Source: Nigrospora sphaerica
Taxonomy: Eukaryota > Ascomycota > Sordariomycetes > Amphisphaeriales > Apiosporaceae
Length of the DNA stretch: 64,000 nucleotides
Assembly (NCBI GenBank): GCA_018287875.1
Contig: JAGVVL010000022.1
Location: 248,001 to 312,000 of the forward strand
Direction of reading: 5' to 3'
In this document: in pieces, positions 1-56,980 of the stretch
Position numbering within the stretch: the first letter of the stretch is position 1
Layout of the letters: every line of letters begins with the position of its first letter
Position numbers and translations under genes: made by a program
Notes under the pieces: generated by a model
What the model was told of the DNA's origin: nothing
Seen by the model: only the letters and a program-made list of their open reading frames with translations
The model's database searches: none

Positions 1-635
1 TGATCGGATCCTGCGTATGGTGCGTATCCGTCATAGGCGACCCGGAGATCGTCTGTGGCCCAGGCTAGGTCGATCGTAGAGTCTGCGCATCCTTTTCGTG
101 TTCATGTCGGTGTTCCAGGCGGTGTGATCAGCTGGAGTCTCCAGGATTCTGCTAGCTGGAGCAGCTTGTCAGCTGCCCTATGGGGTCGGACGTTGTATCC
201 TCCCCAGACGGGGTGGTGGACGTTGAAGTCTCCCACGAGGACTGTTCGTCTTGGCTGGGGTTCGTCATGGAGGGCTTCGATAGCTGGCAGGTCCGATCTG
301 CTGGTGGACCCAGGGGGAGGCGAGTATATGCAGACAACCGTTATGGGACCATCTGGTAGTTGGATTGTAATACGACACCTATCTGGCTGCGCCTCGTATG
401 TCCACTGCGCTAGGGTGTACTTCTTGTTAATGTAGATGCATGCCCTACCTCCCTCGATCGCGTAAAGTAGGTGGTACGGAGAGGATCTCGGGCAGTAGGT
501 GGTCGGCATATGTGGGTTTCGCCAGGGCTCTTGGATAGCCAGGACGTCGTACTCTTCGGAGATGGCATCGACTGCCGGGATCTGTGCTTTCTTGCTTTTC
601 TGCGTGTTCCAGTGTAGGATCCTTAGCGCTATCAT
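1..635 (-). pseudogene. LINE-C ORF2, endonuclease N-terminus (cut by window edge)
   Basis: This is the start of a non-LTR retrotransposon ORF2. The apurinic-endonuclease-like domain shows LHWNTQKSK, an IQEP motif with the catalytic Glu, and LVGDFNVHHPVW with the Asp/Asn pair. The start at 635 overlaps the end of ORF1 as ATGA, a stop-start arrangement seen in Tad-like LINEs. An in-frame TGA at 102-104, probably a former CGA, ends the frame. Reading through it gives further endonuclease-like sequence (STIDLAWATDD) to the window edge. The RT would lie outside the window. The family assignment rests on motifs only. Confidence 0.75.
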
Positions 636-1817
636 GGTCGAGCGTGGATGCTGTTTAGCGTTGACTCCGGTGTTTCGATGTCCATGTCGTCTATCTCTTC
701 GTTGGTTCTGCTGCGGGCTCTGCCAGTGCTTCTAGTACGGCAGCTGGTTGCTCGACGCTTCCGCGGCTGTACTGTCTGCCAGTCCTCGGATGTTGGCTTA
801 GGGGGTTCTTGCGAGGGCAGTGAGAATCCCTTCGGTCTCGTGAAATAAGCAGCCTTAGCGATCTGGACCTGCTCTTGGCGGACTGGACACTCCTTAGACC
901 ACGCAGTGTGTGGTCCTCGGCAATGGATAGTAGCCATACTGCCAAATAAGGCCGTCTCGGCATAGCTGTTCCGCTTGTTGAACCGTGGGTACTGCAATAT
1001 ATAGGGCCGTGACCGTCCTGGACGAGGTCTTAGCGTTGCGAGGGAGCTTGGCCTCTAGGACGTCGATAGGGCCGCCGGGCTGGTTCCGGAGTTGGACTCC
1101 TAGCTGCCCTTGGTTCGTCTCTATGGCCTCCTTGTTGATGCCATGGGCCACCACCAGGATCTTTCTCTTCTGGATAGAGGCGTTCTCTCCGAAGGCCTCG
1201 GTGGTCCAGGCCCGGTCGGTTTCCAGCTGTCGCTTCTCTTCTGCTGTCTTGCAGGTAATAGCACAGTCTCCGCTAGGAAGCTTCCGTGCGGCTATTACTG
1301 TTTCTCTGCCTGTTGCTGCGTTAACTTTCCGCACGATTTCTTCGTAGGTGCGGCCTTCAGTTCCTGCGGCCTTAACCGTTACCTCCCGTTCGTGTCGAGG
1401 AGGCAGAGTCTTGGCTACCTGGGGGGCCCTGGGTGCCGGGGCGGCGGTAAGGGCAGTAGCGGCTGCAGCGTACGTCTTAGGAGCTTTTATTTCCTTATAG
1501 ATAGCTTGCAGCGTGCTCTCGATAGTATTGATACGTCTTTCGACGCTGGGCTGGTTGTCCGATTCCTGGGCCGCCGTCTCTAGGACCGGAATGGCGGCTT
1601 GAACCGCTGCGGCTAAGGCCGCAATGTTGACTTCACCAGCTAGGAAGCGTTTGAAGTCGTCTATAGTGCTGCGTATATCCTCTGGACTGCGTCCAGGTGC
1701 TGTAATGCTGTCTGGCGATGGTGTTCTTGAGTCCGGAGGTGACGGCTCGGGGGGTGGGGCGGGCCTATGGCGGCTCTCACCACCCGCGCTTTGCCTCGAA
1801 GGTGGTGGATCGACCAT
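632..1817 (-). pseudogene. LINE-C ORF1 (gag-like), frame-broken
   Basis: This is the gag-like ORF1 upstream of the endonuclease ORF. Residues 1-60 are Pro/Ser-rich and disordered, followed by a likely helical segment (around VERRINTIESTLQ) and an Ala-rich stretch. The C-terminal part resembles the RNA-binding region of fungal Tad ORF1 proteins. The main frame stops at 894. The tail with the remains of a zinc knuckle (HCRGPHTAWSKEC) lies in another frame from about 960 to 632. The frame therefore breaks near 900-960. It contributes RNA-binding protein to LINE particles if functional, but this copy is probably dead. Confidence 0.7.
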
Positions 1818-2095
1818 TTCTAGGCTAAATGAAGCCCAAGGAACAGTTTCCGAGCTATCCGGTAGCTTAAAGAGTCGTGGTTTTGAAGTTATCGCTGTGT
1901 GGGGTCGGTTTCGAAAAAGTTTTTTCGCGGTGGTTAGAATCCTTTAAATCTTAGAAGCTCTTGATGAATTGTCGTTTCTCGAATCGTGATCTAGGAAGCA
2001 TGACGTATGTGTAACACCTCCAAGCCTAGATGATTGACCATCCGCTTATCACCTCTTACCAGTATTACAACGTTCATGTAACGAACACTACTACT

Positions 2096-2108
2096 ATGGT
2101 ATTGCTGC
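2096..2108. repeat. LINE-A target-site duplication, left
   Basis: The 13-bp sequence ATGGTATTGCTGC occurs here and again at 5411-5423. The two copies flank LINE-A exactly: the ribozyme G1 is the next base on the left, and the (TAA)n tail is the preceding sequence on the right. Confidence 0.9.
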
Positions 2109-2198
2109 GGCTGGCGAAGTCGGACTCTACAGCCTCCCCGCGGCGCCGGCTGGAAATCTTCCTAGGTCAATAGACTGAGGGAGAGCCGATGTAGAGAC
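2109..2198 (+). ncRNA. HDV-like self-cleaving ribozyme at LINE-A 5' end
   Basis: The fold follows the hepatitis-delta-type double pseudoknot. P1 is 2109-2115 with 2145-2151 (GGCUGGC with GCCGGCU, 7 pairs including the G1-U wobble). P2 is 2125-2131 with 2190-2196 (7 pairs). P3 is 2132-2134 with 2142-2144, closing the C-rich loop 2135-2141. P1.1 is possible between loop C residues and G2152-G2153. P4 is 2157-2163 with 2178-2184 (7 pairs). J4/2 is GCCGA (2185-2189), matching GCNRA, so the catalytic C would be 2186. Predicted cleavage is before G2109, exactly the element's first base. In other LINEs such ribozymes free the 5' end of the transcript. Activity here is inferred from structure only. 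Confidence 0.88.
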
Positions 2199-3295
2199 GC
2201 ATTCTGCACGAAAGTGCAGCGAGGCGCCATTGCTGCGTCGCTGTGTCGCTGCACCGGAGTTGTGCTGAGACGGTCTGTGATGCGGGATTTTCGGGCGTCG
2301 CACGACCGAAAATTTTTCGCCCCCGCCAAACGCAGCAAGCAGCCTCGAAAATCGACACCGCGCGACGCCGAATCGACGACAAAATAGGCGCGCAGCGAAG
2401 GCCCTCGTCTCTATAGAGGGATTTGGGTAAAAAAACCATCCGACGTCGACTCGGTTCTCGAGGCGACGACAGGACACCCTCGGCCCTGCCGAGCTCTGAG
2501 ACGGCTTGCAGCAACAGCCGCGAGGGCATCGAACGAATACCTAAGTGGGCGTGCGTACGGAGTAATGGAAGTTGTTAAGAGCACGGGAACGGAGTCGTTA
2601 AGGCAATAGTGGCTACGGCTGGCCGCCCGTGTCGCCCTTCGGGGTGACAGCGCACCGCTCCGGAGACGAACATATGGTGGATCAGGGCAGGTTAGTCGAG
2701 GCCTTACGGGGTACTATGCCGGCGTGGTGGTACCCCCTACCGAAGGCCTACGGCAAGACATGGTCGGCTCGCCGGCAGAGATGGCGGCGAGCAACGGGAA
2801 GCCGGTCTAGGGCTCGCCACCCTAGGACACCGGTGGGCCGTAGCATAGCACGACGACCGCGGGACCGGCAGAAGAACAGGGTAGCCCCTACGTCCCCTAC
2901 TCGCACTAGGGTCGACTAGAGATGGAACCGGTTCGAGGACTTGCCGTGGAAGGGGATGAACAGCTGGATTGGGCCAGCCCAGGGACCTGGAGACAAGGAT
3001 GAGACGGACTGCCTTCGATTGTGCCAAAGGGCATCTTCTCTGTCGGAGTGTCGCTGGCGCAAGTGCTATCCTGGGAGGCTGCAGGTCGAGGAGGTCGTGC
3101 TATGGCTCGAGAGGACGGATGCGCATGTCGGTGGTCCTAGAGAGGGATATGCCCTTGCGGGCTGCTTAAGGTGCAAACCTTCTATTCCCCACCTCTTTCT
3201 ATGGAAAGCGCAGAGAACTAGACCCGGGGGATAGGGGGCCTAAGGCTACGTACACCGGCTTCCGAACAACGAACCGGCTCGCAGCGCCTCTCGAT
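2199..3295 (+). other. LINE-A 5' region, no recognisable protein
   Basis: This is GC-rich sequence between the ribozyme and the RT. Short open frames exist on both strands, but none shows endonuclease motifs (no GDFN or SDH block) or a gag zinc knuckle. It may be a long 5' UTR with promoter or the scar of an internal deletion that removed ORF1 and the endonuclease. Confidence 0.5.
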
Positions 3296-5217
3296 ATGGA
3301 CAGCAAGGTGACAGCAGAACAAGTCCAAGACGTCCTTACTAAGGCTGGCCAGTGGAAGGCACCTGGACCAGACCAGCTTCCGAACGGATTCCTTAAACGC
3401 TTAGGAAAGCCCCTCTTCCAGGCCTTGGCCTCCCTAGCGGAAGCGTGCTGGCATATAGGATACTATCCAAGAGCGTTCCGGAAAGCAGTCACCGTCATCC
3501 TCCGGAAGCCAGGAAAGCAGCCAAACGAGTATCACCAAGCCGGCGGATGGAGACCTATCGCGCTGCTTAACACTATAGGAAAGCGATCGAGAGCCTACTA
3601 GCGCAACGGCTAGCTAGCTTTGCCGAAGAGAACGGACTGCTCCCGGACGAACAGATGGGCAACCGGAAAGGCCGCTCCACGGAAACAGCCTTACGGTTGC
3701 TAACGGACCTAGTCCGCACAGCCTGGAAACATGGAGGCGCAGCAACCCTTCTATCGCTAGATATTTCGGGCGCTTTCGACTCGGTCGACCATGGAAGGCT
3801 CCTCGCTAACCTGCGAGCGCTAAGGGTCCCTATATGGACTATTAGCTGGATCCGAAGCTTCTTATCCAACCGGTCCACTACGCTATTCTTCGACAGCCAG
3901 GAATCGGACGAGATCCCAGTCCCGGCAGGCGTCCCGCAGGGCTCACCCCTATCGCCTATCCTCTTCTGCCTTTATACAGCCGGTCTCTATAAGGCTCTCC
4001 GCGCCGTACCAGGAATAGCTACTATAGCCTTCGTAGACGACACGAACCTCGCGGGCTTCGGTTTAAACCCAGAGCAGACCTGCAAGCGGTTAGAAGCCGC
4101 TCACAGGGTCTGCAAAGAATGGGCAGTCAGCCACGGCATGACTTTCGCAGTCCAGAAATATCACCTAGTCCACTTCTCTCGAAGACGGAAAGGTCCGGAC
4201 ACAAAGATAGCCTTAGAAGGCCACGAAATCGAACCAGAAGACTCCTGCCGCGTCCTTGGCATCCAGGTGGATAGACGTCTCCGCTGGGACGTCCACATCC
4301 AGTCGATATCGAAGAAGATGGCGACGCAGGTCTATGCTCTAGACCGGATAGCCTGCTCGACATGGGGCGCGTCTCTCCAGCGAGCCCGCCAAGTCTATAC
4401 AGCCGTCGTACGGTCTGCGATAGGCTATGGAGCTTCAGAGTGGCACCGCCAGATCTCGAAAAATCGAGCCAAGGCACTTAACGACGTCCAGACAGAGTGC
4501 CTCCGAAAGGTCACAGGAGCTTTCAAAGCCACGGCCACTGCAGTACTAGAAACGGAAGCTTACGTATCCCCCTTAGACACGTGGCTCAACAGAAGGGTGG
4601 CGGCATCGGAAGAGAGGCTCCAACAGCCGCGTATCGCATCACTTATCCAAGCAAGGTGCGATAGCGCAGCTAGATGGATCCTAACAAGACCGACTCGCCG
4701 GCGCAGACCGAAAGGCCCCGACGCTCCCGATCGTAAGAGGTGGCTAGACGAATGGCTAGCTGGAGACTCAGCACATAAGGCTGAGGAGAGAGACTGGCTT
4801 CAAAGATGGCAACAAGCGCAGCAAAATCGAACAGCACGGACCCCGGCAGCAACTAAGATGCCGCCAGACAAGCACGTCCTCAAGCTCCATAAGGGACTCC
4901 ATAAGGCCGAGAGCTCCATCTTCGTCCAAGCGAGGACTGGCAAGATTGGGCTGCGAGACTTCCTTTTTAAGCGTAGGGTCCCGGGCTTCGACAGCCCCTG
5001 GTGCGTCTGCGGTCAGGGCAGGGAGACCGTCCGGCATATCCTCGTTTTCTGCCCACGGGAAAGAGAAAGACGAGAGCATCTCGTCCAAGCTCTAGGAGGA
5101 CCGATAGACACGGACAGGATGCTCGACACCCCAGGAAAAGCAGGAATTATCGCGAGATGGCTACTCCGCTCCGGCAGGCTGGACATGTTCCAGCTAGCGA
5201 ATCAACTCATCAGCTAG
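3296..5217 (+). pseudogene. LINE-A reverse transcriptase, one-base frameshift
   Basis: The first segment (3296-3601) carries the RT N-terminal motifs KAPGPDQLPNGF, ILRKPGK and GGWRPIALLNTIGK. The second (to 5217, 520 aa from 3655) carries motif A (LDISGAFDSVDHG), motif B (GVPQGSPLSPILF), the catalytic FVDD and a C-terminal C-x-C-x8-H-x4-C knuckle near 5000-5055. The two join if one base is added to the short A run near 3580, restoring the common IGKAIE motif. No RNase H is seen after RT. Apart from this single-base break the RT looks intact, so the frameshift may be a sequencing error. Confidence 0.85.
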
Positions 5218-5410
5218 GAAGCGGGCGCGCTGAGCCCGATCTCGGTATAGCAGGTCAAAGTGCAGATAGAAGCGGTGCGACGCAGCGGAACCTAGGTTTT
5301 TCACCCGGCCGGACGTTAGCCCGGAACGGTTTTCCTAGGCTAAGATGCGCAGGGGGTCCTCATGGCCTAAATAGGTCGCTAGGTGTAAGAATAATAATAA
5401 TAATAATAAT

Positions 5411-5423
5411 ATGGTATTGCTGC
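5411..5423. repeat. LINE-A target-site duplication, right
   Basis: This is an exact copy of 2096-2108, directly after the (TAA)n tail. Confidence 0.9.
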
Positions 5424-5601
5424 ACCTTCCCTTCAATTTATCTTCCGTGCGCTTGGAGCTGTTAGCTCCTAAGCGTGCAGCGCACTAGATTCCTTAACAG
5501 TGGGCCCGAAGGTCCCATAACGCACCGAAACACCAAGTTCCCTTGTCGCGAGGAGCGTGGCGGACCTCCGGTCGGCCGCGCTCGCCATCGCGATAGCTGC
5601 C

Positions 5602-7536
5602 ATGGACGCCTCCGCAGCACACCGATACGGCGATCACGACGATCCACGCCTGTCGGACTCCGAGTCGGAAGACCCACGTACCGCCCTCGACGCCACCCAA
5701 CAGGCCATGACGGCCTCGACGCCCCGCGCGAGTGTGGGCCTGACCCCCCACCAACGCAAGAAACGCGCTAGGAACGGGAACCTCATCAACGAATCCCCGT
5801 GCCCGGCCCCCACGACCCTGCCAAGCGGGAAGGCTAGCAAGGTAATCGACCTAACGAGCGCTGCCGAACCACATTCTGCAGCCCCTCAGGGCCTGCAGGA
5901 GTCCGTACACGCGCCCCAGGCCGCGACCAGACCGACTAAGGCCTCCTCGGAATTCTACGACCAAATGGCCGAGGCTAGGAGGAAGAACCAGGACCGAGAG
6001 GAGGTCATGACTATGGTAGCCAGGGCTCTGGACTCGATCCCCACAGCCCTCCCCCTCCGCCAACGAGAAATGGCGGACGAAGTGGTGGCGGGCATCTTCA
6101 CCCACCTTCGCACCACCATGTTCGCCCAAGGGGTGCTTGGAGAACCCATTAGCGTGACCCCTCCGACCACACTCGACTCACAAGCCTCGAAACCGGGGCG
6201 CCTAGCGGCCGCCAGAACGACGCAAGTCCCAACTTGGGCCGCTATCGCGACCTCGTTCCCCACGACGAGCAGGGCCTCTACGAAATCGGTCACCTTCTCG
6301 GACGAAAGCACTCGCTCCAGGTTAGCAAAGACGAATAAGACGAACAAGTCCACCAGGACCGACGAGACGGATAAGTCGAAGGGCCCCCCACCTGACATAC
6401 GGGTCCTCGTACGCGTTCACGAGGAAAGGCTCGATTGGGCCCGGAGACAACCGACCTTCGCCTTACGAAAAGCTGCCGCCGAGAAGCTTAAGATACCCTT
6501 GGCGGACATCCCCGAGATACACCATATCCCCTCCGGCTTCGCTATACGACCAAGAACTAAGGAGATCCAACTCCTTATCCTTTCCGACAAAGCCCAATCT
6601 GAGCTGGGAGGCCTATTCGGGGCCAAGGCCTTTGACACACACCAAAAATGGTATAACTACGTCGTCCCTAGGTGCCCGAGGGAGGTTCCCCAACTCTCCC
6701 TAAGTGAGGCTACCCTACAACCGATACCCGCGGTGGACGTGGCGGCGGAGGAGGCAGAGGCCCAGACGGGACTCAAGCCGAAGAGAGTCGCGTGCTCCAC
6801 GAAGGGGCCTACGGAGGTAGGCTTCGTCACACTCATCGTCTCCTTCACCGAGAAGGTCCGGCCTTTCAAGCTCTTCGGCTCGTCAGTGATGGTCAGGCTT
6901 ATCGATAAAGCCCCGGCCGTCCACAGACACGACCCAGGCTGCCAGGGCTGGCACTCTGGGCGCAACTGCGCTAGGGACCCCCGATGCGTGACCTGCGGGG
7001 AGAAGACGCACGCGGGCCCCTGCCAACGACCCCCGAAGTGCGTTAACTGTCACGCACCACAGCCCGCAGACCACGAGGGCTGCCCTGCTAAGCCGGTACG
7101 GAAGAACGGCAAGATGGTGCACCCTACGAAAAAGCAGAGGGCGTCCTTCAGATCCGCCGGAGAACAGCTCTACAGGGCTGCCCACCCTGAGCTGCTCGGT
7201 GATCGAGCCCCCGAGACTACTCGACTAGCCAACCAGGCTGAAGCCCCTACCGTTCCTACCGTGCCTACAACCCCGAAGGGGGCAAGGGTCACAGCCTACG
7301 AAACGAATAACGGCTGCCCCGAGGGGCGGCCTTCCACCCCGACGCAGCCTACCATTTTCGCTGCAGGTTCCCCCCCCAGGGACCATGAGGGCGATATCGA
7401 CCTAACCGATCTCCCGGACTCCCCGACGAAGGCCTTAGCAGAAATCCAACGTCGATCGACCCGTTGCAGGGCGCCTTCTAGCCGCCTACTCGACTCGCTA
7501 CCTTCGCACGTTAATGAATTACTCGATAGCGAGTAG
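5602..7536 (+). CDS. LINE-B ORF1, gag-like RNA-binding protein
   Basis: An intact 644-aa ORF from the first in-frame ATG (the frame is open from 5557 but only with GTG). The N-terminal half is low-complexity and acidic/Ser-rich. A conserved central region (around RVHEERLDWARRQPT) is followed near residues 435-500 by three successive Cys/His clusters, including CVTCGEKTHAGPC and CVNCHAPQPADHEGC. These are typical of ORF1 of Tad/I-type LINEs, which coat the transcript. It overlaps ORF2 by 23 bp in another frame, so ORF2 is probably translated by reinitiation or a frame change. Confidence 0.85.
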   Translation: MDASAAHRYGDHDDPRLSDSESEDPRTALDATQQAMTASTPRASVGLTPHQRKKRARNGNLINESPCPAPTTLPSGKASKVIDLTSAAEPHSAAPQGLQESVHAPQAATRPTKASSEFYDQMAEARRKNQDREEVMTMVARALDSIPTALPLRQREMADEVVAGIFTHLRTTMFAQGVLGEPISVTPPTTLDSQASKPGRLAAARTTQVPTWAAIATSFPTTSRASTKSVTFSDESTRSRLAKTNKTNKSTRTDETDKSKGPPPDIRVLVRVHEERLDWARRQPTFALRKAAAEKLKIPLADIPEIHHIPSGFAIRPRTKEIQLLILSDKAQSELGGLFGAKAFDTHQKWYNYVVPRCPREVPQLSLSEATLQPIPAVDVAAEEAEAQTGLKPKRVACSTKGPTEVGFVTLIVSFTEKVRPFKLFGSSVMVRLIDKAPAVHRHDPGCQGWHSGRNCARDPRCVTCGEKTHAGPCQRPPKCVNCHAPQPADHEGCPAKPVRKNGKMVHPTKKQRASFRSAGEQLYRAAHPELLGDRAPETTRLANQAEAPTVPTVPTTPKGARVTAYETNNGCPEGRPSTPTQPTIFAAGSPPRDHEGDIDLTDLPDSPTKALAEIQRRSTRCRAPSSRLLDSLPSHVNELLDSE

Positions 7537-10500
7537 ACCCCGGAGGCAATTCCGGGCAAGGGGCAGAAGCGATAAAGACAGGCCCCTAGCGATCGCATAC
7601 CAAAACGTCGCCCGCTCGAGGCCGTCCCACGAGGCTTTCCTAGAACTATGCGCCTCCCAGAAGGTGGACGTCGTCTGCGTGACCGAACCGGCATGGGGCA
7701 GCGACCAACATGGCCCGCTCGCAGTAACACACGCCCACTACAAGCTTTACTCGTCCGTCTCCCACTGGACGAATAAGCAAGATAGACCTAGGGCCCAAAT
7801 GTACGTCCGTAAAGACGGCACCCTTAACGCGAAACAGCTCATATGCTTTCCGACCAAATTCACCATCTGGATGGTAATTAACGGCTACACCATCATGACG
7901 ATGTATCGAGATCGCCGCAACCCACAGTGGCACCACGAACTCCACAGATACACACCCCCTAACCGCAGATTTCTCGTGGTAGGGGACTTTAACGCTATTA
8001 GCAGTGTCTGGCAGTTCTGCACCCCCAACGAAGAAAACAGCGCCGGACGCTCTACTGCTGCCTGGGCGGCGGCGCATAGCCTCTCCTTCATTGGAGAATA
8101 CGCCAGGGCCACACACGATAGGGGCAACACCCTAGACCTGGCCTTCTCTAATGTCCCGTTCGCTAGCTCGATAGTGGACGATGCACTCACAGCCCCTAGC
8201 GATCACTCAGCCCTCCGAGTCACGCTCCCCATCGGTGGCAGGATCCGGGTGGACCACCATAGGTTCACCGTCCCAGAGGACAAGATCGAAGCCTTCAAAG
8301 GACTGGTCACGGCGGGACTCAAGCACGCCCCCAGACCTAGGACAAAAACGCCCGAGGAAATCGACGATGTGGCTGACTTCCTAGTCGACACACTAAAGAC
8401 GGCTGTCCGAGGCGCCGGTAAGGCCCCAGGACCACCGGGCGGCAGCGCGCCCTGGTGGACAGAAGACTGCGGCATAAAGCACAGGCTATATAAAGCCGCG
8501 GTCCGCGCCTCAAGCCTCGCGGAAGCCTGGGCTGAGAAGAAAGCGTTCCGGACTGCTGTGCGGATAGCTAAGCGACAATACTGGCGGGGGCTGATCGACG
8601 GAGCCACCTCAGACCAAAACCTTTACCGCATCGTGGCCTGGCATAAACTGGGCACGGCCTGCGGGCCTCCGCCACTGGTGGTCGACGGGCGCACGATAGA
8701 CGACGCGAAAGAGAAATGCGAGGTACTAGGGGAGAAGCTTCTGCGACGCTTCTCGCCTACGGACGACATCGTTACCGACCCTCTGCAGGTGCCCGTAGTC
8801 CCCTCTAGGACGATTAAGTGGAACGACGAGATTACTATCGAGGAACTCGAGCTATGCACCACTGGCACAAAGAAGACTTCCCCCGGAACCGATGGGCTAA
8901 CGGTGCGGCTACTGAAAGCCGCATGGAAAGCTATCGGGCCCGTCTTTGCCCCCCTATGCCAAGCCTGCCTTGAGACAGGCTACCATCCACGGGCGTTCCG
9001 CTTAGCCGAGGTCGTCATGCTACAGAAGCCCGGAAAAACAGACTACACGACCCCAAAGTCGTGGCGGCCCATCGCACTCCTCTCGTGCCTAGGCAAGGGG
9101 CTGGAGAGGCTAGTAGCGAGACGCATGGCCCGGATCTCCCTACGGGAAAGAATCCTCAACCACCAACAGTGCGGCGCCCTGCCTAAGAGATCGGCTACGG
9201 ACCTACTCGCGTGCCTTATTCACGATATCGAGCACGCGCTCGAATCGGAGAGAGTGTTCTCAGTGGCTACGCTAGACGTACAAGGGGCCTTCGACGCGGT
9301 CCAGAAAAACCGACTTGGACTTACCCTCTTACGACAAGGCTGGCCAAGGAACCTAGTACGCTGGGCGATCTCATTTTGCACAGACAGGAGCGCCAGAGTG
9401 CGCCTAGACGGGGCCACGTCAGACTGCTTCCATCCGGAGTGCGGCCTCCCCCAGGGGAGCCCAGTCTCGCCGGTGCTCTTCATGCTGTCGATCGCGGACG
9501 CCTTCCCAAAGACCGGCCAAAGTCACTTCGGATACGCGGACGACATCGCCATCGGCTGCGAAGGGCCTACACACGAAGCGACTACAAAGCAGCTCACGGA
9601 GCTAGTTGGAGAGCTCTTAGACTGGGGCCTAGAAAACAAGACAGTCTTCGACCCGGATAAGGCGGAGGCGATGCATTTCACCCGGAGAAGACCCCCTAGC
9701 GGGCAGGAGGACGCGGGACCTACTATAGAGGTCCAGAGACACAACTTCGTGATTGAACCTACTAACCCGAACTCAGACGACAAGCCAGTGATGCGCTGGC
9801 TAGGGGTCTGGTTTGACAGTCGCCTCAAGTTTGAAAAACACGCTGCTATTAGGGCTGCGAAAGGCCTAGCGGTAGCGAACCACATCCGCAACCTCGCTAA
9901 CACGAAATATGGCCCTCCTTCCCAGCAGATACGCAAGGCGGTCTCGACAGTGGTGCTCCCAACTCTACTATACGCGGCAGAGGCGTGGTGGCCGGGCAAG
10001 ACGAAGACACCCACGAGCCGGCTTGTGAACAGGCCACAGACGGTCAGCACAGGCCAACAAGGGAACATCGACACCCTGTCGAAGCCCTGGAACGCGGCCC
10101 TCCGGGCCATACTGCCAGTGTGGAAGACGACCCCGAACGGCACCCTCCCTATAGAGGCAGGGCTCCCCCCGATCGAGGTCGCCCTCGAGAAGGCTAGACA
10201 TCGAATGGCCTTCAGGACAGTCTCCGTGGACACCGCGCACCCGCTAGTCCCGAGACTAGCGCAGAGGCTAAGACAAAGAGGCAAGAGCGCTAGTGGCCTC
10301 CAACCGGTACGGACACGCTTGCAACGAGCGTATAGGATGTACGGACAGCCTGACAGGCCGATACTCCTACTCCCGAGACACCTACCTGGCTCCCTACAGC
10401 CGGTGGCGGACATGGCGAAGAAGGCGAAAGCTACGGCCTTTAAGAAGTGGTGGCAGGAACTATCGCCGACAGACGTCGTAGTCTTTTCCGACGGATCCCA

Positions 10501-10978
10501 GATCGAAGGGCGCACGGGCTGGGGGTACGTCATCTACCAGAACCAGCGCACGCTGCAATGCGACTCGGGACGGCTAGGACCTTCGGAGGTCTTCGATGCA
10601 GAGGCGGAAGGGGCCTTAGCAGGCTTGAAGGGCGCGTTCCGGCTCGGCCTGCAACGCTACCCCATACACATCTGCCTCGATAACACCTCAGTGGTGGCCT
10701 GCCTCCGGGGCAATCCCGCCGACAGCTCCCAAAAGGCCTTCATCCAGTTCCAAGCCCTGGCACGGACGGCAAGGGTCATGGTACACTGGGTCCCAGGACA
10801 CTCCAAGGTACAAGGAAACGAAGAAGCGGACCACCTCGCAAAGCTAGGAACCGAGATGACACCACCAGGCCCCGAACGGCCTCCGACGATCGCGTACGTA
10901 AAACGGACAACGAAGGAAGCCTCCAAGACTCTCTTCCAGCGCTGGTGGACTTCCGAAGGACCCAGACACAAACGCTGA
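7514..10978 (+). CDS. LINE-B ORF2: endonuclease, reverse transcriptase, RNase H
   Basis: 1154 aa. The N-terminal endonuclease spans about residues 20-250, with AYQNVARS, VTEPAW, VVGDFNA, DLAFSN and SDHSAL. The RT spans about residues 440-730, with KTSPGTDGLT, SWRPIALLSCLGK, TLDVQGAFDAV, GLPQGSPVSP and the catalytic YADD. The RNase H spans about residues 985-1115, with FSDGS, DAEAEGAL, CLDNTS and WVPGHSKVQGNEEADHLA, supplying all acidic residues. This is the domain order of the Tad group. The frame ends at a TGA (10,976-10,978), after which the same frame continues to 11,371. The enzyme domains are complete, so this copy could be close to active. Confidence 0.92.
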   Translation: MNYSIASRPRRQFRARGRSDKDRPLAIAYQNVARSRPSHEAFLELCASQKVDVVCVTEPAWGSDQHGPLAVTHAHYKLYSSVSHWTNKQDRPRAQMYVRKDGTLNAKQLICFPTKFTIWMVINGYTIMTMYRDRRNPQWHHELHRYTPPNRRFLVVGDFNAISSVWQFCTPNEENSAGRSTAAWAAAHSLSFIGEYARATHDRGNTLDLAFSNVPFASSIVDDALTAPSDHSALRVTLPIGGRIRVDHHRFTVPEDKIEAFKGLVTAGLKHAPRPRTKTPEEIDDVADFLVDTLKTAVRGAGKAPGPPGGSAPWWTEDCGIKHRLYKAAVRASSLAEAWAEKKAFRTAVRIAKRQYWRGLIDGATSDQNLYRIVAWHKLGTACGPPPLVVDGRTIDDAKEKCEVLGEKLLRRFSPTDDIVTDPLQVPVVPSRTIKWNDEITIEELELCTTGTKKTSPGTDGLTVRLLKAAWKAIGPVFAPLCQACLETGYHPRAFRLAEVVMLQKPGKTDYTTPKSWRPIALLSCLGKGLERLVARRMARISLRERILNHQQCGALPKRSATDLLACLIHDIEHALESERVFSVATLDVQGAFDAVQKNRLGLTLLRQGWPRNLVRWAISFCTDRSARVRLDGATSDCFHPECGLPQGSPVSPVLFMLSIADAFPKTGQSHFGYADDIAIGCEGPTHEATTKQLTELVGELLDWGLENKTVFDPDKAEAMHFTRRRPPSGQEDAGPTIEVQRHNFVIEPTNPNSDDKPVMRWLGVWFDSRLKFEKHAAIRAAKGLAVANHIRNLANTKYGPPSQQIRKAVSTVVLPTLLYAAEAWWPGKTKTPTSRLVNRPQTVSTGQQGNIDTLSKPWNAALRAILPVWKTTPNGTLPIEAGLPPIEVALEKARHRMAFRTVSVDTAHPLVPRLAQRLRQRGKSASGLQPVRTRLQRAYRMYGQPDRPILLLPRHLPGSLQPVADMAKKAKATAFKKWWQELSPTDVVVFSDGSQIEGRTGWGYVIYQNQRTLQCDSGRLGPSEVFDAEAEGALAGLKGAFRLGLQRYPIHICLDNTSVVACLRGNPADSSQKAFIQFQALARTARVMVHWVPGHSKVQGNEEADHLAKLGTEMTPPGPERPPTIAYVKRTTKEASKTLFQRWWTSEGPRHKR

Positions 10979-14398: not shown

Positions 14399-15787
14399 GG
14401 CGCCCCGCTGCACTTTCGTGCAATTTGTCTCTAGGTTGGCTCGACCTGGTTCAATTACACAAGAAAGATTTCCAGCAGCCGCAGTGTGGAGGCTGTGAAG
14501 TCCGACCTGGCCAGCCAGGCAAGGAGTGTGTAAGCTGTAGGTCAGAGGCAGCGAAGTGCTCGGAGTCTGGACCGCCCCAGTGGGTCTTACTTCATACAAA
14601 CTAACAGGGATTTTTTCCATTGACACTTCCCTGAGCGGACCTGTTCCGGACTGGGAAATGCTCGCTGATTCGTTAGGACTTAGGCCGGCTAGCAGACTAG
14701 AGCGAAGTCTCTAAAATGTCTAACTAGCGATTGTTTCCCGAGAGTTTGCGGCTAACTAAGGATTATGGGCCCTTTTAAGGTAAGCCACGCGCTATTCTAG
14801 ACCGCTGGTTCCCGATCCCTGGAACCCAAACCTTTCTCCCATGATTAAATCTTTGGTTCATGTGCCGTGTCCACGAACACTATATCTCTTTAGGTGCTGA
14901 TTGCCGGTTTTCAGCAAATCGCGGTAGGAAGCATGACGTATGTGTAACATTTCTAAATCTGGAGGATCGTCTGCCCATTTTGTCAAATCCTTCTAGTGTT
15001 GGCTACAGCAGTCATATCTTTCCATTTGTAAGTAAAGGAGTCACACCGGTGATCGGCCCAGCACGATTCAGCTATTTCTTTCCAGGAAAGCTCCGTTGCT
15101 AACATTACATCTAACATTTGTCTGATGCTGCATAGCTACGTAATATGTGCAAGCATTCACTTAAAAAGCCATCAATAGTAGGCATGCTGGTGTAAGCTAG
15201 TGGAACACCCGATGGGATAACCCAGGAACCCTTGTTTAAATTTTGCCCTGTGCCGGCCTTCTGAATTGGACTGGATGGTACGTAGGCCAATGTCATGATG
15301 CGAGAGGCCTTTATGGTATGAAACAACTACATCATGCATTGCTCTATGGAGGGGCTACCCTCCCTACTTGTTTTCCAAATAGCTACTTCTCTTATGCTGG
15401 ATAAGCTTTCTCCCCCCTGACTCGAAACACTGGTTGTAGAGGTTTTGCCACCTCCCGGGTAAATACTTTCAACCATATTCCCTGTAGACTGGGTAAGGGT
15501 TTGAAGAACTTAGCGTTCAATGAATCAATACCTTACACTCTTTGTTCCTAGAAACAGTGGCGTTCTCACAAGGATCCTCTCATACTACATTGTCATGAAT
15601 CAGTGCAAAGTCAATTTCTAATTAGTATATAGGCAAGCGAAACTGATTCGGCCAAGTGGGATTCGACAGCATGGGCTTTTCTCATACGGTATGAAATCAA
15701 TTGTGCCCAATTCACGACGTTAATTATCGACTACATTTTACTCTTAGTCGAGGTATTTTTCTTCGACCTTTCTACACGGCTTTCACC
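14399..15787. other. Intergenic, degenerate repeat near 14,750-14,970
   Basis: No gene is seen. 14,752-14,970 resembles the repeat at 29,971-30,370 and 49,923-50,335 in outline (TTATGG..CCTTTTAAGG.., CGCGCTAT, then GACGTATG), much diverged. 15,000-15,787 is the presumed upstream region of the RGS gene. I see no clear TATA box there. Confidence 0.35.
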
Positions 15788-34285: not shown

Positions 34286-34783
34286 TCAATTAATTTTAAC
34301 TAGAATACAAGAACTAGCCTCACTTAGGCTTTCGCTATCGCTCTCTTCACTGAGACCACTTTCAACCTCCCTAACCGCCAATTGAGCTCGGTGGATGTCT
34401 TCGATGTTCGCGAACTTCGAATTAGGGCTTAAATCCACCTTCTTCCTTTTCCTTGGTTTGATAGTCTCAATCCTAGCTTCGAGAGCTTGAATTTGCCTTT
34501 GCGCAGTAGCTAATTGGACATTCTTCTCATCAAAGGCCTTTTGAATCTTCCGGAATAGTAGCCGTTGAGTGGTTGAGTGTTCCGCTAGCTGGTTCGAAAG
34601 CTGTACTTGGTCCTTGAAGTCCGACGTCTTCTTTGGAGTAGACCAAACCATTATAGAGGTACCGGATCTCTTTTTAGGTGTTAAGAAAACTCCATTCAAG
34701 TGGGATTGCTTCGATTCTGTTGTGCTGGGTGTTGTTTGGTGTGCATTTTGAACTAAATTCCGACTGAGAAGCGGCTTAGCTAT
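34286..34783 (-). pseudogene. D3 transposase, C-terminal part
   Basis: This is the continuation of the D3 transposase after the gypsy insertion. It is in frame with 48,112 onward when the LTR element and one GCTAT are removed. It contains a heptad-like segment (LLFRKIQKAFDEKNVQLATAQRQIQALEARI) and the basic KPRKRKKVDL, as in the D2 tail. It ends at 34,286. Confidence 0.85.
34779..34783. repeat. Gypsy target-site duplication, left (GCTAT)
   Basis: GCTAT here and at 48,112-48,116, directly outside the two gypsy LTRs. Confidence 0.92.
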
Positions 34784-42588: not shown

Positions 42589-42789
42589 AGCATCGTGGAC
42601 AAGATACTACCTGCTGCTAAGAGCAGGGCTTTAGTATCTATAAACGCACCGACCCTGCTTTCCTTTCCTCTGAGCCTCCTTCGTGTGGTACTGCACGCGA
42701 GGAGCGCGCTCCCTGAGCTCCACAATGGGGCCAAGCTCCGCAGGATTGTCGCCGGAAACACTGGAGGAACTGGAGCTCGAGCTCAAGTC

Positions 42790-44152: not shown

Positions 44153-44342
44153 TGTCGCGAGACGAGCCTATTGTCACTAACAAGCCTACCAGGTCACGTG
44201 ACTTTATGTAAGCTCAAGAGCCTAGCCTGTCAGGCAGGCTACGGAACTACTATATCTACGTCTGGATCCTCAGATAGTTTTCCTTTGTTTTTCCTAATAG
44301 AACAACTAGAATCTCGTTCCTCACGTCCCCTGAAGTGCGACA
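44153..44342 (+). repeat. Copia-1 3' LTR
   Basis: 190 bp, no difference from the 5' LTR seen by eye. Followed by the duplication CCTTG. Just upstream (43,986-44,050) there are two direct repeats of CAACTCATCGTC. Confidence 0.93.
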
Positions 44343-47300
44343 CCTTGGAATCCCGTGGCTTAAGATGCACGACCCACGTGTGGGTTTTGCGAGTCACACG
44401 TTTATATTCGACAGCGAATTCTGTCGCCAGAACTGCAATATGCCAGAGAGACCTATGAAGGTCGTCGCCATGCATGACGTCCCTGCACGAGCCCGTCCGG
44501 AGAACCTGCCGAACCGTCCGGAGGCCTTATCCCGATGGGACGTCGCCCCGATTACCGCTCGCGCCTGCTCAGCGTACCTAAGGAAAGGATACGCCGCGTT
44601 TCCCGTCACCGTCGAAGAGATCGACGAGCACCTATCCCAGAAGGCTGATCCGCCCCTTTCCGAGCAACTCCCGCTAGAACTGCGAGAATTCGAAGATGTG
44701 TTCTCACCGAAAGAAGCAGAGAAACTGCCACCGCATAGAGATCACGATCACGAGATCCGACTGATGGAAGGGAAAATGCCCCCCTTCGGACCCCTATACG
44801 CTATGTCCCGCGAAGAACTGGCCGCACTAAAAGAGTGGCTACAAGAGAATCTTCGAAAGGGGTTTATCCGACCCAGCTCGTCCCCGGCCGCGTCGCCCGT
44901 CCTATTCGTTAAGAAGCCTGGAGGAGGACTCCGTTTCTGTGTCGACTACCGCGCCTTAAACAACATCACTATTAAGGACCGTTACCCGCTGCCCCTAGTT
45001 AAGGAGACCTTAAATAACCTAAAGGGAATGAAGTATTTCTCTAAAGTCGACATTATTGCGGCATTCAACGAGATCAGGGTTAAAGAGGGACAAGAATACC
45101 TGACTGCATTCCGCACCCGTTTTGGCTTATTCGAGTCATTAGTTATGCCTTTCGGACTGACTGGAGCCCCTGCCACATTTCAAAGGTTTATTAACGATAC
45201 CTTACGACACCACCTAGACATCTGCTGCACTGCGTACCTAGACGACATCCTAATTTACAGCCGGACCCGCGAGGAACACGTCGAACACCTACGGAAGGTG
45301 CTTCAAGCATTAAGAGAAGCCGGCTTATTCGCGAAAATGTCGAAGTGCGAATTCTTTAAAACTGAGACCACATTCCTAGGGATGATTGTTGGCCGCGATG
45401 GCCTACGCATGGACCCCGCTAAGATTGAGACAGTTAAGAACTGGGCCACTCCGTCCTGCTTAACCGATGTACAAGCGTTTATCGGCTTTGGGAACTTCTA
45501 CCGCCGGTTCATCCGGGACTTTTCGAAGATTGTCGCCCCGCTAGTTAACCTCACAAGGAAAGGGGTTGAATTCGCTTGGACAGAAGAATGTGAGAACGCA
45601 TTCGTTGCGTTAAAGAACGCGTTCACATCGGCCCCGATCCTGGCTCCCTTCGACTGGGAGAAAGAAGTGATTTTAGAGACCGATGCCTCTGACTATGTCT
45701 CTGCTGGTGTGCTATCACAGTACGGAGACGACGGAATTCTACGCCCAGTTGCCTTCTTCTCAAAAAAGCACTCTTCAATAGAGTGTAACTACGATATTTA
45801 CGATAAGGAACTTCTAGCCATCATTCGTTGCTTCGAAGAATGGCGTCCTGAACTGGAAGGCGCGTTATCGCCGATTAAGGTCATCACCGACCACCGGAAC
45901 CTGGAATACTTCACAACAACAAAGTTGCTAAACCGCCGACAAGCAAGATGGTCTGAATTCTTATCTCGATTTAACTTTAAGATCGTGTACCGACCCGGGA
46001 AGCAAGGGATAAAACCCGACGCCCTAACTAGGAGGTCAGAGGACCTACCTAAAGAGGGGGATGAACGACTGCTACACCAAAGTAGAGTCGTCTTAAAGAA
46101 AGAGAACTTCGAACCGCAAAGGAAATCAGTCCGCTTCGAGGAAAGCCCGACCCGAGCCAACGCCGTAACTAGATCGCAATCCGCTCCTAGCCGTCCCCTA
46201 GAACTAAGCGCCGTCGACCTAGACCCCCAGCCTGCTATTACACCATCTCTACGACAAGAACGCCACGCCCCATTACTGCCGCCAGCTATTCAGAACCTCA
46301 TGACCCGAGGATACGAGTCAGACGAGACTGTTCACTCCATCTTAAAGGCACTGCGCACCGGAAAACCCCGCCACCCCTTAATCTCCCTTGCCGAGTGCGA
46401 GGAACGAGCTGGTATGCTGTACTACCGCGACCGCCTTTATGTCCCTGACTTACCCGAACTCCGCGCTGAACTGACTCGCTCGTACCACGACACTGCCGTG
46501 GCTGGACACTTAAAGAGAGCCCGCACGTACGAGACCCTATCCCGAGACTACTACTGGCCGCGGATGTACGCCTTCGTGGAGCAATGGACTAACAACTGTC
46601 ACACCTGCCGCCGGACCACTTCTTCCCGCGAAGCTAAGCAAGGGGTGCTCCGCCCGCTGCCCGTACCCGAACGAGCATGGCAGGACATTTCGATGGACTT
46701 CGTCGTACACCTACCGAAGAGTGACGGCTACGACGCTATCTTAGTCGTGGTCTGCCGCTTAACGAAGATGAAACACTTCATCGCCTGCCGAGACACCTGT
46801 GGCGCCGACGAGGTCGCGCGCCTATACCTGAATAACGTCTGGAAACTGCACGGCCTACCGAGAACCGTAATCTCCGACCGAGGTCCCCAATTTGTGGGAC
46901 GATTCTGGGGACACCTAACCCACCGACTAGGTATTCAAAGCCTGCTGTCGACTGCCTTTCACCCCGAGACCGAACGAGCGAACTCGTTCCTAGAACAGTA
47001 CCTCCGCGCCCAAGTGTCGTACTTACAAGACGATTGGAGCCGCTGGCTCCCCTTAGCTGAATTCGCGTTAAACAATGCCCTGAATGAGAGCATCAAGACC
47101 ACACCGTTCTTCGCGAACTACGGATTCCACCCGAGAATCGGGTTTGAACCACTGGACCCCGACCGTACCCCTGCAGCCCTAGACGCTGAGCGCGTCGCCC
47201 AGAAGATTCAGGAAGTCCACGAGATGTTGAAGTCGGAGATCTGTTTAGCGCAAGCCCGCCACGAGGAATACGCCAACCGTAAAAGACGCCCCGCCCGCCG

Positions 47301-47451
47301 ATACCAAGTAGGCCAGAAAGTCTGGCTTGACGCCCGAAATATACGGACGAAACGCCCTCAGAAGAAACTCGACTGGAAGCAACTCGGACCCTTCACCATT
47401 ACGAAGGTCGTGAGCCCGTACGCTTATCAGTTAAACCTGCCCCGTCTATGA
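44343..47451 (+). pseudogene. Gypsy pol: RT, RNase H, integrase
   Basis: It resumes the pol frame after copia-1. [25 protein letters not shown] and the catalytic YLDD. RNase [17 protein letters not shown] and the TDHRNLEYF block. Integrase: HHCC zinc finger ([11 protein letters not shown]), then [18 protein letters not shown] and [10 protein letters not shown]. The spacing between the second Asp and the Glu is 31 rather than 35 residues, because the usual TDGQ of this motif is absent, so integrase is probably inactive. The frame ends at 47,451, one base short in a C run of joining the chromodomain frame. Confidence 0.9.
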
Positions 47452-51661: not shown

Positions 51662-54600
51662 TCACGCTTTCTCTACCGCTTGTCTGATGTCCTGTAGGTT
51701 AAGAAGACTCCTGAAGTGTTCAAACTTTGGTCTGGATAGATTCTTCGTTAAACCGTCGGCTGGCATGTCAGCTGTGGGCACATAGGTAAGCTGGAACTGG
51801 CCTTTAGCGTGCTCCTGGCGTAGCCATAGGTTGTGGATGTCCACATGGCGTAGCTTCGTGGATATCCTTTCCGAGTTACCTACGACCAGGCGGATGGTCT
51901 GTTGGTTGTCGCAGCCTATGCTAAACGGCGTTTTAAGCACTAGTTGGATCGCCTCGAAGAACCGCTGTAAAGCGATCGTTTCTTTAGCTGTCTCGCTGAG
52001 CGCTAGAAGCTCTGCTTCCGTCGTCGACGTGGTGACTGTAGCTTGCCGGCTTGCCTTCCAGGCGACTGGTCCTCCAAACAGTTGGATAAGGTAGCCTTGC
52101 GAGGAGCGCCTTGTTACCGGATCATCCGCGAAGGACGCGTCTGACGAGATAATAATAGCTTGCGGTGCTCCTTGTTGAACTTCCGGGGTAATGCCGGCTT
52201 GCCGTAGCGTATGGCCACGTATCTGGTGCTATAGGCGTACCGAATACACCAGTCCGCTGCCTCTAGGTGGTCCTGAGAGGGATTCGTTAAGTGACGAGAT
52301 AGCTGCGACGCTGCGAACGCTAGGTCTGGTCTGACCATAATTGCGCTATATAGGATGCTCCCGACGCGCTCCTGGAACGCCTTGATCCTGTGTTTTGGCG
52401 CAGTCACCCCCGAGGGCGTCTGGAGCTCCGTTTGTGGCAGTGGTGTAGCTGGTACTCGTCCTTCACAGAGTCCGAATCTCTTGGCCACCTTCTCTAGGTA
52501 CGCATCGTGGCATATCCACAGCAGGCTATCCTTTCGCTCTCTGAGGACCCTGACGCCCAGGTAGTACTGGACATCTCCTTGCTCTTTCAGTTCGTAGGTG
52601 CTTTTCAGGGCTTCTATGAGCTGATCTGCTTCTTGTCGGTGCCCCGGATGGTTGCAGACGAGGAAGTCGTCGACGTAGAAGACCACAAATATCGTGCGCT
52701 TCTTGTTAAAGTATAGACATGGCTCCTCTGGAGTTGATCGCATTCCAAGCCTCTCCAGCGTGCTAGAGAAGTCCCGGAACCAAAGGACTGGTGACTCCCG
52801 TAGTCCATAAAAGGCCCTAAGGAGCTGAAGAACGTAGCCTTCCCGTTGGAATCCCGGAGGGTATTCAACGTAGATAGGTTCAGCTCCTTTGTCGAAAAGA
52901 GCGTTGAGAAACGCGTTAACGACGTCATGTTGTCTGATGTCCCAGCCGAAGTGGGCTGCAACAGCGACAATAATGCGGAAGGACCTGGCCGCTAGTGTAG
53001 CTGCGTAGGTGCTTTCCAGGGAGTTCTTTGCCTGTTTGTCTCCGCGGACGCAGATGCGCGCCTTGCAGCGGATATGGACGTTATTCTCGTCGAATTTGTC
53101 GGTCCAGACCCATTTCACTGGCAACACGAACATCCCTGGAGCTCGTCGGACAGGCTGCCAAGCGCCCATGTCCTCCGCCTTCTTGAATTCCACCATTGAG
53201 GCTGCCCTGAAGAGGTCCCCCTGGGATGAGTAGCTAATTCATGCCAGTGTCGAGGTGGAGGGTCCTTTTCGGATGGACCACCCGCTTCCTCTGCAGTTTC
53301 TCGCCCCAAGGCTTGCTGTGATCGACTTGCCGCAAAAACGCGTGCATGAGTCGTCCTGTGGAGCGAATCGCCGTATTGAACAATGTCTTCTCCACTGAGA
53401 AAGGTCCCGAGAAGCGCTTCGAGTTGATCAGTCTCCTGTAGCAGTATCTCCTCAGGCCTGTATTCGACTGCCATGAAATTGTGGTTCCATGGCCTCTGTC
53501 GTCTTCTGTCACTAATCCTAACGCGTCTCCTCCGAGTTGACTGCTCTGGGGAGGGTGGCCTTGCGCTGGATCTCCTGCCTGACTGGGATCGCTCCTCAGC
53601 AGGACTTTGATGCTCTTCTGGTAGTCGAACAATGATCTCTTCTAGGATCGTCTCGTCGGACGTATCCGGTGTGTTCCTGGGTCGGTCGTGTGACGCTTCT
53701 CCAGGCCTGTGCGCATCCGCTGCATCCTGGCGTTGGCCTTGGCTAGCGAATGTTGTGTCAGCGTTCTCATCTGTGACCCCAGGTCCTGGCGAGGGTCTCG
53801 GAGTAAGAACTCCAGCTTGCGTATCCAGCCTGCCAGACTCATGAGCACCTGGTAGGCCTTCAGAAGCGCTTTCCACCCCCGAGTTCTTGTCGACTGGCCC
53901 CTCGGTTGCTTCAGCGTCCCCTGAGGCCTCCAACAGCGGTTGCGGCGCTGCTGAAGGCTGATCAGGACGTAGCGTCGGAACGGTTTCGTCATCCAGTTGC
54001 TCCAGCTGTTCCCATAAGTGCATTGTATCTCGTGTGAAGCCACTGTCGCTTAGCGGAATGTCTGCCGGTTGAACCTCAAGGTACTCTAGTACCTCGGGCT
54101 CTAGCCTGGGCGTCTCTCCGCTTTTGTAGAATTGCGTCTCGTCGAAAGTGACGTCGCGCGTCTGGATGACTCTGCCGTGCTTTGGTAGCCAGATTCTGTA
54201 GATATTGGAGGCTGCGTAGCCCACCAGATATCCTATCTGACCCCTGAACTGAACCTTGAAAGCTCGCTTGTCAACCCCTGCGGCACGCTTCATATGGAGA
54301 ACGAAGGCTTTGCATCCAAAGACATAGATCCCTGACCAGTCTGGTCTGAGGTCTGTCTGGAATGATCGTACCGCAAGGGTCCCGTAGTGCTTCGAGTGAT
54401 CCTGGAACCATTCGAATAGCACCTCATCCGGGCTTCTGAAGCGCTGTGACTTGGCTGGTGACATGTTGATTAGCTTTGTTGCAGCCATCGCAGCCTCTGG
54501 CCATAGCACTTCAGGAAGGTTGGCATGCTTCAGCATCTTGAGCGCGCGCACCACGACCTCCTGGCCGGCCCGTTCAGGGCCTCCATTCGGTTCGTGCGTG

Positions 54601-56843: not shown

Positions 56844-56980
56844 GATTGTAGAAGCTTGTGAAGGGTTCTCTGGACAGAGGGATATTTGAGTGTGAGAAAG
56901 GATAGTGAGGACTTGTCCTGCCAGGCTACTGGGTGTTGGATGGCAGCGTTATAACGTGGTGTTAAGGTGTGCTGCGAACC

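What the first reader, a model, noticed from the sequence alone, without database searches (positions are those of the whole stretch)
2109..2198. HDV-like self-cleaving ribozyme at the exact first base of a fungal LINE
Seen: all helices of the HDV-type double pseudoknot (P1 7 bp with G1-U wobble, P2 7 bp, P3 3 bp, P4 7 bp, possible P1.1), a J4/2 of GCCGA fitting GCNRA, and a core closely resembling the HDV genomic ribozyme core. The predicted cleavage site is between the 13-bp target duplication and element base 1, an independent agreement. Known: R2, RTE and other LINEs use such ribozymes to trim their 5' end. I do not know of a description for this fungal family.
Basis: partly seen in the sequence, partly recalled or inferred. 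Interest (0 to 1): 0.9.

Follow-up and report, generated by a model that had tools for sequence, protein, structure and literature searches.

The report
Ribozyme-tipped RNA fused to fungal LINE
A fungal genome carries dozens of mobile DNA copies that begin with a predicted self-cutting RNA, and this RNA appears to belong to a separate non-coding RNA that the LINE machinery stitched onto broken LINE copies, which would explain why the copies start at the same base.

Summary
An HDV-type nested double pseudoknot starts at G2109, directly after the target-site duplication. Three Rfam HDV-type models place it there, all below gathering score. 47 of 48 distinct module-type copies read start at this base.

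The interpretation needs correcting: the ribozyme is not the LINE's own 5' end. Bases 2109-3240 are a non-coding module of about 1.13 kb, joined to a LINE whose truncation point differs between copies. In 33 of 38 mapped junctions the template carries CC where the module ends in GGGGGCC. Full-length copies of this LINE start differently.

This is the architecture of Magnaporthe MINE chimeras (WEIRD RNA + MGL LINE, template jumping; PMC2104539), but probably in a Xylariomycetidae-like fungus (one protein tested). Two published WEIRD primer sites do not match. My explanation: a free non-coding RNA whose 5' end is cut by an HDV-like ribozyme is captured end-on by LINE reverse transcriptase. The ribozyme also occurs 610-757 bases downstream of a TATA box in the three copies of a second, non-LINE repeat family read at length. 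Cleavage and the free RNA are inferred; the source gene was not found.

The parts
2096..2108 (+). left target-site duplication
   Evidence: extends it to 14 bases
2109..2196 (+). HDV-like ribozyme: P1 2109-2115/2145-2151, P2 2125-2131/2190-2196, P3 2132-2134/2142-2144, P4 2157-2168/2173-2184, J4/2 2185-2189 (C2186 the presumed catalytic C)
2204..2219 (+). hairpin after P2, kept with compensating changes in the second family
2109..3240 (+). non-coding module (1,132 bases); its last two bases CC are shared with the LINE template at the junction
3241..5410 (+). 5'-truncated LINE 3' part with reverse transcriptase (open frame 3571-5217, Pfam RVT_1) and (TAA)n tail
5411..5423 (+). right target-site duplication
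1..1925 (-). 5' part of another copy of the same LINE family, running off the window, with that LINE's own, different 5' end (Pfam endonuclease match at 105-731)
14400..14516 (-). decayed relic of the ribozyme and hairpin

Best explanation
Window 2109-5410 is a chimeric retrocopy. A free non-coding RNA of about 1.13 kb carries an HDV-like self-cleaving ribozyme in its first 88 nucleotides; the ribozyme cuts the precursor just before G1, so the RNA starts there. During target-primed reverse transcription of a LINE RNA, the reverse transcriptase stalls after copying a CC of the template, and the nascent cDNA moves to the 3' end (...GGGGGCC) of the free RNA, pairing over those two bases. It copies that RNA up to its ribozyme-defined 5' end, and the product is inserted with a target-site duplication. 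Shown by sequence: the fold, the exact start, the module's fixed 3' border, the variable LINE start, the CC rule, the duplications. Inferred: cleavage, the jump, and the existence of the free RNA.
For: Fold and position. Exact start in 47 of 48 module-type rows, 9 of 15 copies with a 10-22-base duplication abutting base 1 (two of the 9 are one duplicated insertion, and one lies in a tandem repeat). Constant module, variable LINE start in 14 of 14 long copies. CC at 33 of 38 mapped junction events, 29 of 33 after merging shared sites, 28 of 31 counting LINE templates only, against 9.0% CC background. LINE with its own 5' end. Structure kept under change: 95.9% of cells paired against 92.3% in shuffles, 29 doubly changed cells against 9.3; position 4/40 of P1 is U.G, C-G (L054, L117) or G-C (L095).
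Against: No cleavage data. All Rfam scores are below gathering, and RF00094 also rings, below cut-off, in 4 of 14 control genomes. Inside the alignment P1, P2 and P3 show no doubly changed pair, and two of five covariation measures do not beat the shuffles. All 9 family-B rows have G.G at 4/40 and 5 of them a shortened L3; the relic in this window has mismatches in P1 and P2. No free module RNA or solo gene was found; two of 41 events run into DNA other than LINE or module that I did not fully identify (L016, L109). L009 and L020 leave the module after 674 and 495 bases.
Confidence: 0.72

Rival explanations
1. One reading: the ribozyme is the LINE's own 5' end and frees LINE RNA from read-through transcripts, as in R2, RTE or L1Tc.
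For: The fold starts at the first base of the insertion, as reported for R2 (PMC3774820, start of abstract seen in the listing).
Against: Full-length copies of this LINE start elsewhere (39 of 39 scored non-self matches) with no HDV match there. The LINE part starts at many points behind a constant module, and a second LINE family is joined to the same module in only 3 of 40 scored copies.
Confidence: 0.05
2. After insertion the chimeras spread as units: the ribozyme cuts the whole module-LINE RNA out of a host transcript and the LINE tail lets it be copied again.
For: Some chimeras share a junction; L021/L098 are identical over the 102 LINE bases compared and L031/L108 over 108.
Against: 41 junction events. 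The same-junction pair L061/L070 is 94.0% alike in the LINE part, the different-junction pair L061/L064 93.4%; some shared junctions carry different module subfamilies (L024/L066, L032/L025, L031/L015). L031/L108 differ in the module (93.0% over 43 bases).
Confidence: 0.09
3. The fold is a relic or a coincidence, and the fixed 5' base is simply the transcription start of the module RNA.
For: Sub-threshold Rfam scores; G.G mismatch in family B; decayed relic C.
Against: Chance of about 1e-6 per base; pairing kept across copies and across two families with unrelated downstream DNA; in family B the fold lies 610-757 bases downstream of a TATA box in the three copies measured, so not at that promoter's start.
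Confidence: 0.08

Closest known systems
MINE chimeras of Magnaporthe (WEIRD RNA + 5'-truncated MGL LINE), Gogvadze et al. 2007, PMC2104539
   Same: About 1.1-kb non-coding 5' part with fixed ends (1,113 nt there, 1,132 here), LINE part truncated at many points, jump sites ending in C or CT, target-site duplications, no solo gene found
   Different: No ribozyme is mentioned there (0 occurrences). Two WEIRD primer sites (PMC3978060) do not match our module. The paper reports no microhomology at the junctions; here CC is shared.
5' HDV-like ribozymes of R2 and of L1Tc/ingi elements (PMC3774820, PMC4035085; starts of abstracts seen in a listing)
   Same: HDV-type fold at the exact 5' base of retrotransposed DNA
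   Different: There the ribozyme belongs to the mobile element; here it lies on a non-coding passenger module, and the LINE has another 5' end.
Fungal HDV ribozyme variants, PMC5640933 (HDV section and passages read)
   Same: HDV-class ribozyme in fungal non-coding DNA
   Different: Those have C-G at the cut site, a loop E in P4 and an extra base between P2 and P3; ours has G.U, a plain P4 helix by eye and no extra base. 'Retrotransposon' occurs 0 times in that text.

Membership tests
HDV-like self-cleaving ribozymes (structural class) | nested double pseudoknot P1/P2/P3/P4 | tested here: met
HDV-like self-cleaving ribozymes (structural class) | P1.1 mini-helix | tested here: inconclusive
   C28/C29 could pair with G45/G44 by eye; no test made
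HDV-like self-cleaving ribozymes (structural class) | catalytic C in J4/2 | tested here: met
   C78 (C2186) invariant in 31 of 31 rows; that this C is catalytic is taken from knowledge of the family
HDV-like self-cleaving ribozymes (structural class) | self-cleavage 5' of P1 | not testable with these tools
   needs transcription in vitro
Rfam RF00094, RF01787, RF02682 | score at or above the gathering cut-off | tested here: not met
   30.1 of 50, 24.2 of 37, 19.3 of 44 bits
Fungal HDV variant of PMC5640933 | C-G at the cut site, loop E in P4, extra base between P2 and P3 | tested here: not met
   loop E judged by eye
MINE-type chimera (architecture) | constant non-coding 5' part joined to a LINE truncated at many points, with target-site duplication | tested here: met
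MINE proper | 5' part is WEIRD | tested here: not met
LINE-borne 5' ribozyme (R2/RTE/L1Tc type) | ribozyme at the native 5' end of the element that encodes the reverse transcriptase | tested here: not met

The most novel reading that the evidence does not exclude
The module has no chromosomal gene. It is a free ribozyme-ended RNA that persists at RNA level, for example as a multimer or circle that the one ribozyme cuts into unit-length RNAs, fixing both G1 and the GGGGGCC end, and LINE reverse transcriptase writes it into the genome again and again. WEIRD of Magnaporthe would be the same kind of agent.
Probability: 0.1. Interest if true: 0.88.

Novelty: new variant of a known kind. Interest (0 to 1): 0.62.

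Why it matters
WEIRD was described in 2007 as a non-coding RNA of unknown function with no solo gene found (PMC2104539). A ribozyme at base 1 of a WEIRD-like RNA gives such an RNA an anatomy and a simple test, and would explain why dozens of chimeras begin at one base. If true it extends 5' HDV-like ribozymes from elements that encode reverse transcriptase to a passenger RNA captured end-on, and adds a two-base rule for where reverse transcriptase jumps. The second family with a TATA box upstream suggests that this fungus may use the same ribozyme to trim more than one RNA.

Tried and rejected
Ribozyme as the LINE's own 5' end: rejected. Module as the ordinary 5' leader of the second LINE family: rejected, since of 40 scored copies 35 match only from the two CC bases on and 2 from a few bases later, 3 including module (60 candidates). 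Spread of chimeras as units as the main mode: not supported by the pairs compared, but open for L021/L098 and L031/L108. Identity with WEIRD: two primer sites do not match; the founding MINE paper is not held, nor are two HDV-ribozyme papers. Relatives outside this genome: two pattern scans of viral contigs gave 0 and 1 stretches; the one stretch (L116) is a bare 16-base match and was not pursued. Other fungal genomes could not be searched. Viroid-like structure of the module: linear z -2.75, circular z -3.2 on 40 shuffles, only modest. C13:179485 (L117) as source gene because its P1 position 4 is a Watson-Crick pair: rejected, it is an old copy that runs into reverse-transcriptase-like sequence after 566 bases. 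L016 as a solo gene: its downstream DNA is a dispersed repeat (90-92% matches in L036 and at window 34305-34648). L109 (104 bases held) stays unidentified. Rfam alone misses the relic at 14400.

Full report
1. The observation. Counting G2109 as base 1: P1 1-7/37-43, P2 17-23/82-88, P3 24-26/34-36, P4 49-60/65-76 with one A.G mismatch, J4/2 GCCGA at 77-81. Three Rfam HDV-type models start at 2107, 2109 and 2110, each below its gathering score. In the whole genome 52 places match RF00094 at E up to 10 (86 of 4,240 candidates scored), best 33.6 bits, none over the cut-off; the same search rings, below cut-off, in 4 of 14 control genomes, so one score of this size proves little. Position does more: the fold starts at the base after the target-site duplication. 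A descriptor search finds two hits in the window, this one on + and one at 42778 on -; 347 shuffled windows gave 44 hits.

2. Copies in the genome. The window lies in a 51.6-Mb, 33-contig fungal assembly. The first 29 bases occur exactly at 48 places and with up to 3 mismatches at 66; the control pattern gives 0. Of the loci held at that point I read 51 distinct rows: 3 are family B (below) and 48 are of the module type. Of these 48, 47 start at base 1; one (L057) lacks the first bases. The 25-base flanks differ, except that L063 and L072 share one (a duplicated insertion) and L017, L022 and L044 share part of a repeat. Of 15 copies examined for duplications (14 loci and the window), 9 have a 10-22-base repeat that abuts base 1; the other 6 gave none in the stretch held.

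3. Not a LINE end. In 14 of 14 long copies the first ~1,132 bases are 93.7-98.6% identical to the window's, and then LINE sequence starts at 12 different points. The same LINE has a full-length form with another 5' end: in a search with its 5' region all 39 scored non-self matches begin at query bases 168-174, about window 1925 on the - strand (40 of 222 candidates scored). No HDV-family match lies there at E up to 10. The module has no long open frame: at most 105 codons stop to stop on + and 137 on -. Two other copies leave the module early, L009 after 674 and L020 after 495 bases.

4. Junctions. A script found 41 junction events: 36 into the first LINE, 1 into another module (L104), 2 into a second LINE family (L017, L022), 1 into a dispersed repeat (L016) and 1 unidentified (L109). 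For 38 of them, L016 included, the sequence upstream of the jump was found in other copies. In 33 it ends in CC, as does the module's end GGGGGCC; background CC is 9.0%, binomial P 8.6e-30. The others are CT (2), TC, TT and AG (the last is L016). Events are not all independent; merging shared sites leaves 29 of 33, and 28 of 31 for LINE templates only, P about 1e-26. For the second LINE family 35 of 40 scored copies match from the two CC bases on. Same-junction copies are mostly separate events: L061/L070 are 94.0% alike in the LINE part, different-junction L061/L064 93.4%; L021/L098 and L031/L108 are identical over the 102 and 108 bases held. On contig C16 a module is joined to a module truncated at base 31, inside the ribozyme's L3, and this to a LINE.

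5. Structure under variation. Alignment A1 holds 31 distinct sequences, 22 of the module type and 9 of family B. Left out: duplicates, L043 (one base different, my omission), the incomplete L057, L095 and L104, and L117-L121 and the relic at 14400, which were found later. 95.9% of cells are standard pairs (shuffles 92.3%; structure slid by 1-3 columns 38.4-48.7%); 29 cells are changed on both sides (shuffles 9.3); the covariation score is 0.137 (shuffles 0.078). Two of five measures do not beat the shuffles: pairs changed on both sides (161 of 500 reach it) and further pair types (54 of 500). The shuffle control does not keep relatedness, so it flatters. Double changes lie in P4 (3 pairs) and in the hairpin after P2 (2 pairs); P1, P2 and P3 have none, and the P4 pair 56/69 is unpaired in 21 of 31. 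Outside A1, position 4/40 of P1 is G-C in L095, beside U.G in most copies and C-G in L054 and L117. L117 is a copy at 78% identity over 566 bases that keeps base 1, a 7-bp P1, the GCCGA and a shorter P4. Against this: all 9 family-B rows have G.G at 4/40 and 5 of 9 a 5-base L3; the relic has two mismatches in P1 and, by my reading, three in P2.

6. Family B. Ribozyme and hairpin (121 bases, 82.6-84.3% identity in L075-L077) also sit in a non-LINE repeat. Twelve places match its upstream part up to the ribozyme, and in all twelve I read a ribozyme there. L092 has it too; L093 lacks it. In the three copies read at length a TATATAA box lies 610-757 bases upstream of the ribozyme. Downstream no further match to the module was found (E up to 1e-3). 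This looks like an RNA gene or element whose leader a ribozyme would remove; given the P1 mismatch many copies may be inactive.

7. What is known. PMC2104539 (abstract, background, results, conclusion and methods read) describes MINE: a 1,113-nt non-coding RNA, WEIRD, fused to 5'-truncated MGL LINE by template jumping, jump consensus GCC*A/U, no solo gene found, no microhomology. The word ribozyme does not occur in it. Our module lacks two WEIRD primer sites printed in PMC3978060 (passages read). PMC5640933 (HDV section and passages read) reports 230 fungal HDV variants in 26 species, with cleavage shown for two; ours lacks their three marks. The listings of searches of an open-licence library showed me no paper that places a ribozyme on a MINE-type chimera or a WEIRD-like RNA; I opened three papers, and work outside that library was not searched.

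8. Mechanism and standing. Shown by sequence: fold, exact start, fixed module border, variable LINE start, CC rule, duplications. Inferred: cleavage, template jump, a free RNA. The source of that RNA was not found. Its gene may be missing from the assembly or among copies not read, the chimeras themselves may be processed to it, or the RNA has no gene; the last is the boldest reading and is not excluded. The modest fold scores of the module neither help nor exclude it.

Noticed in passing
L075-L077, L083-L092; genome places: Second repeat family (B): TATA box, tandem-repeat leader, then the same ribozyme and hairpin, then unrelated non-coding DNA.
   Followed up: partly
window 14400-14516 (-): Decayed relic of the ribozyme, with two further copies at C30:14822 and C11:858160 that share its upstream flank.
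   Followed up: partly
genome C16:1848-4086 (L104, L108): Three-part chimera module - truncated module - LINE; the first jump happened inside the ribozyme's L3.
   Followed up: partly
L095: Family-B-like copy whose P1 is fully paired through A1-U43 and G4-C40 but which has lost P4 and P2; may show the older P1 of family B.
   Followed up: no
window 5521-10978 (+): Another non-LTR element: upstream frame without a Pfam match, then endonuclease, reverse transcriptase and RNase H; its DNA does not match the second LINE family joined to the module.
   Followed up: no
window 44278-47451 (+) and 53115-56948 (-): LTR-retrotransposon-like polyproteins by Pfam.
   Followed up: no
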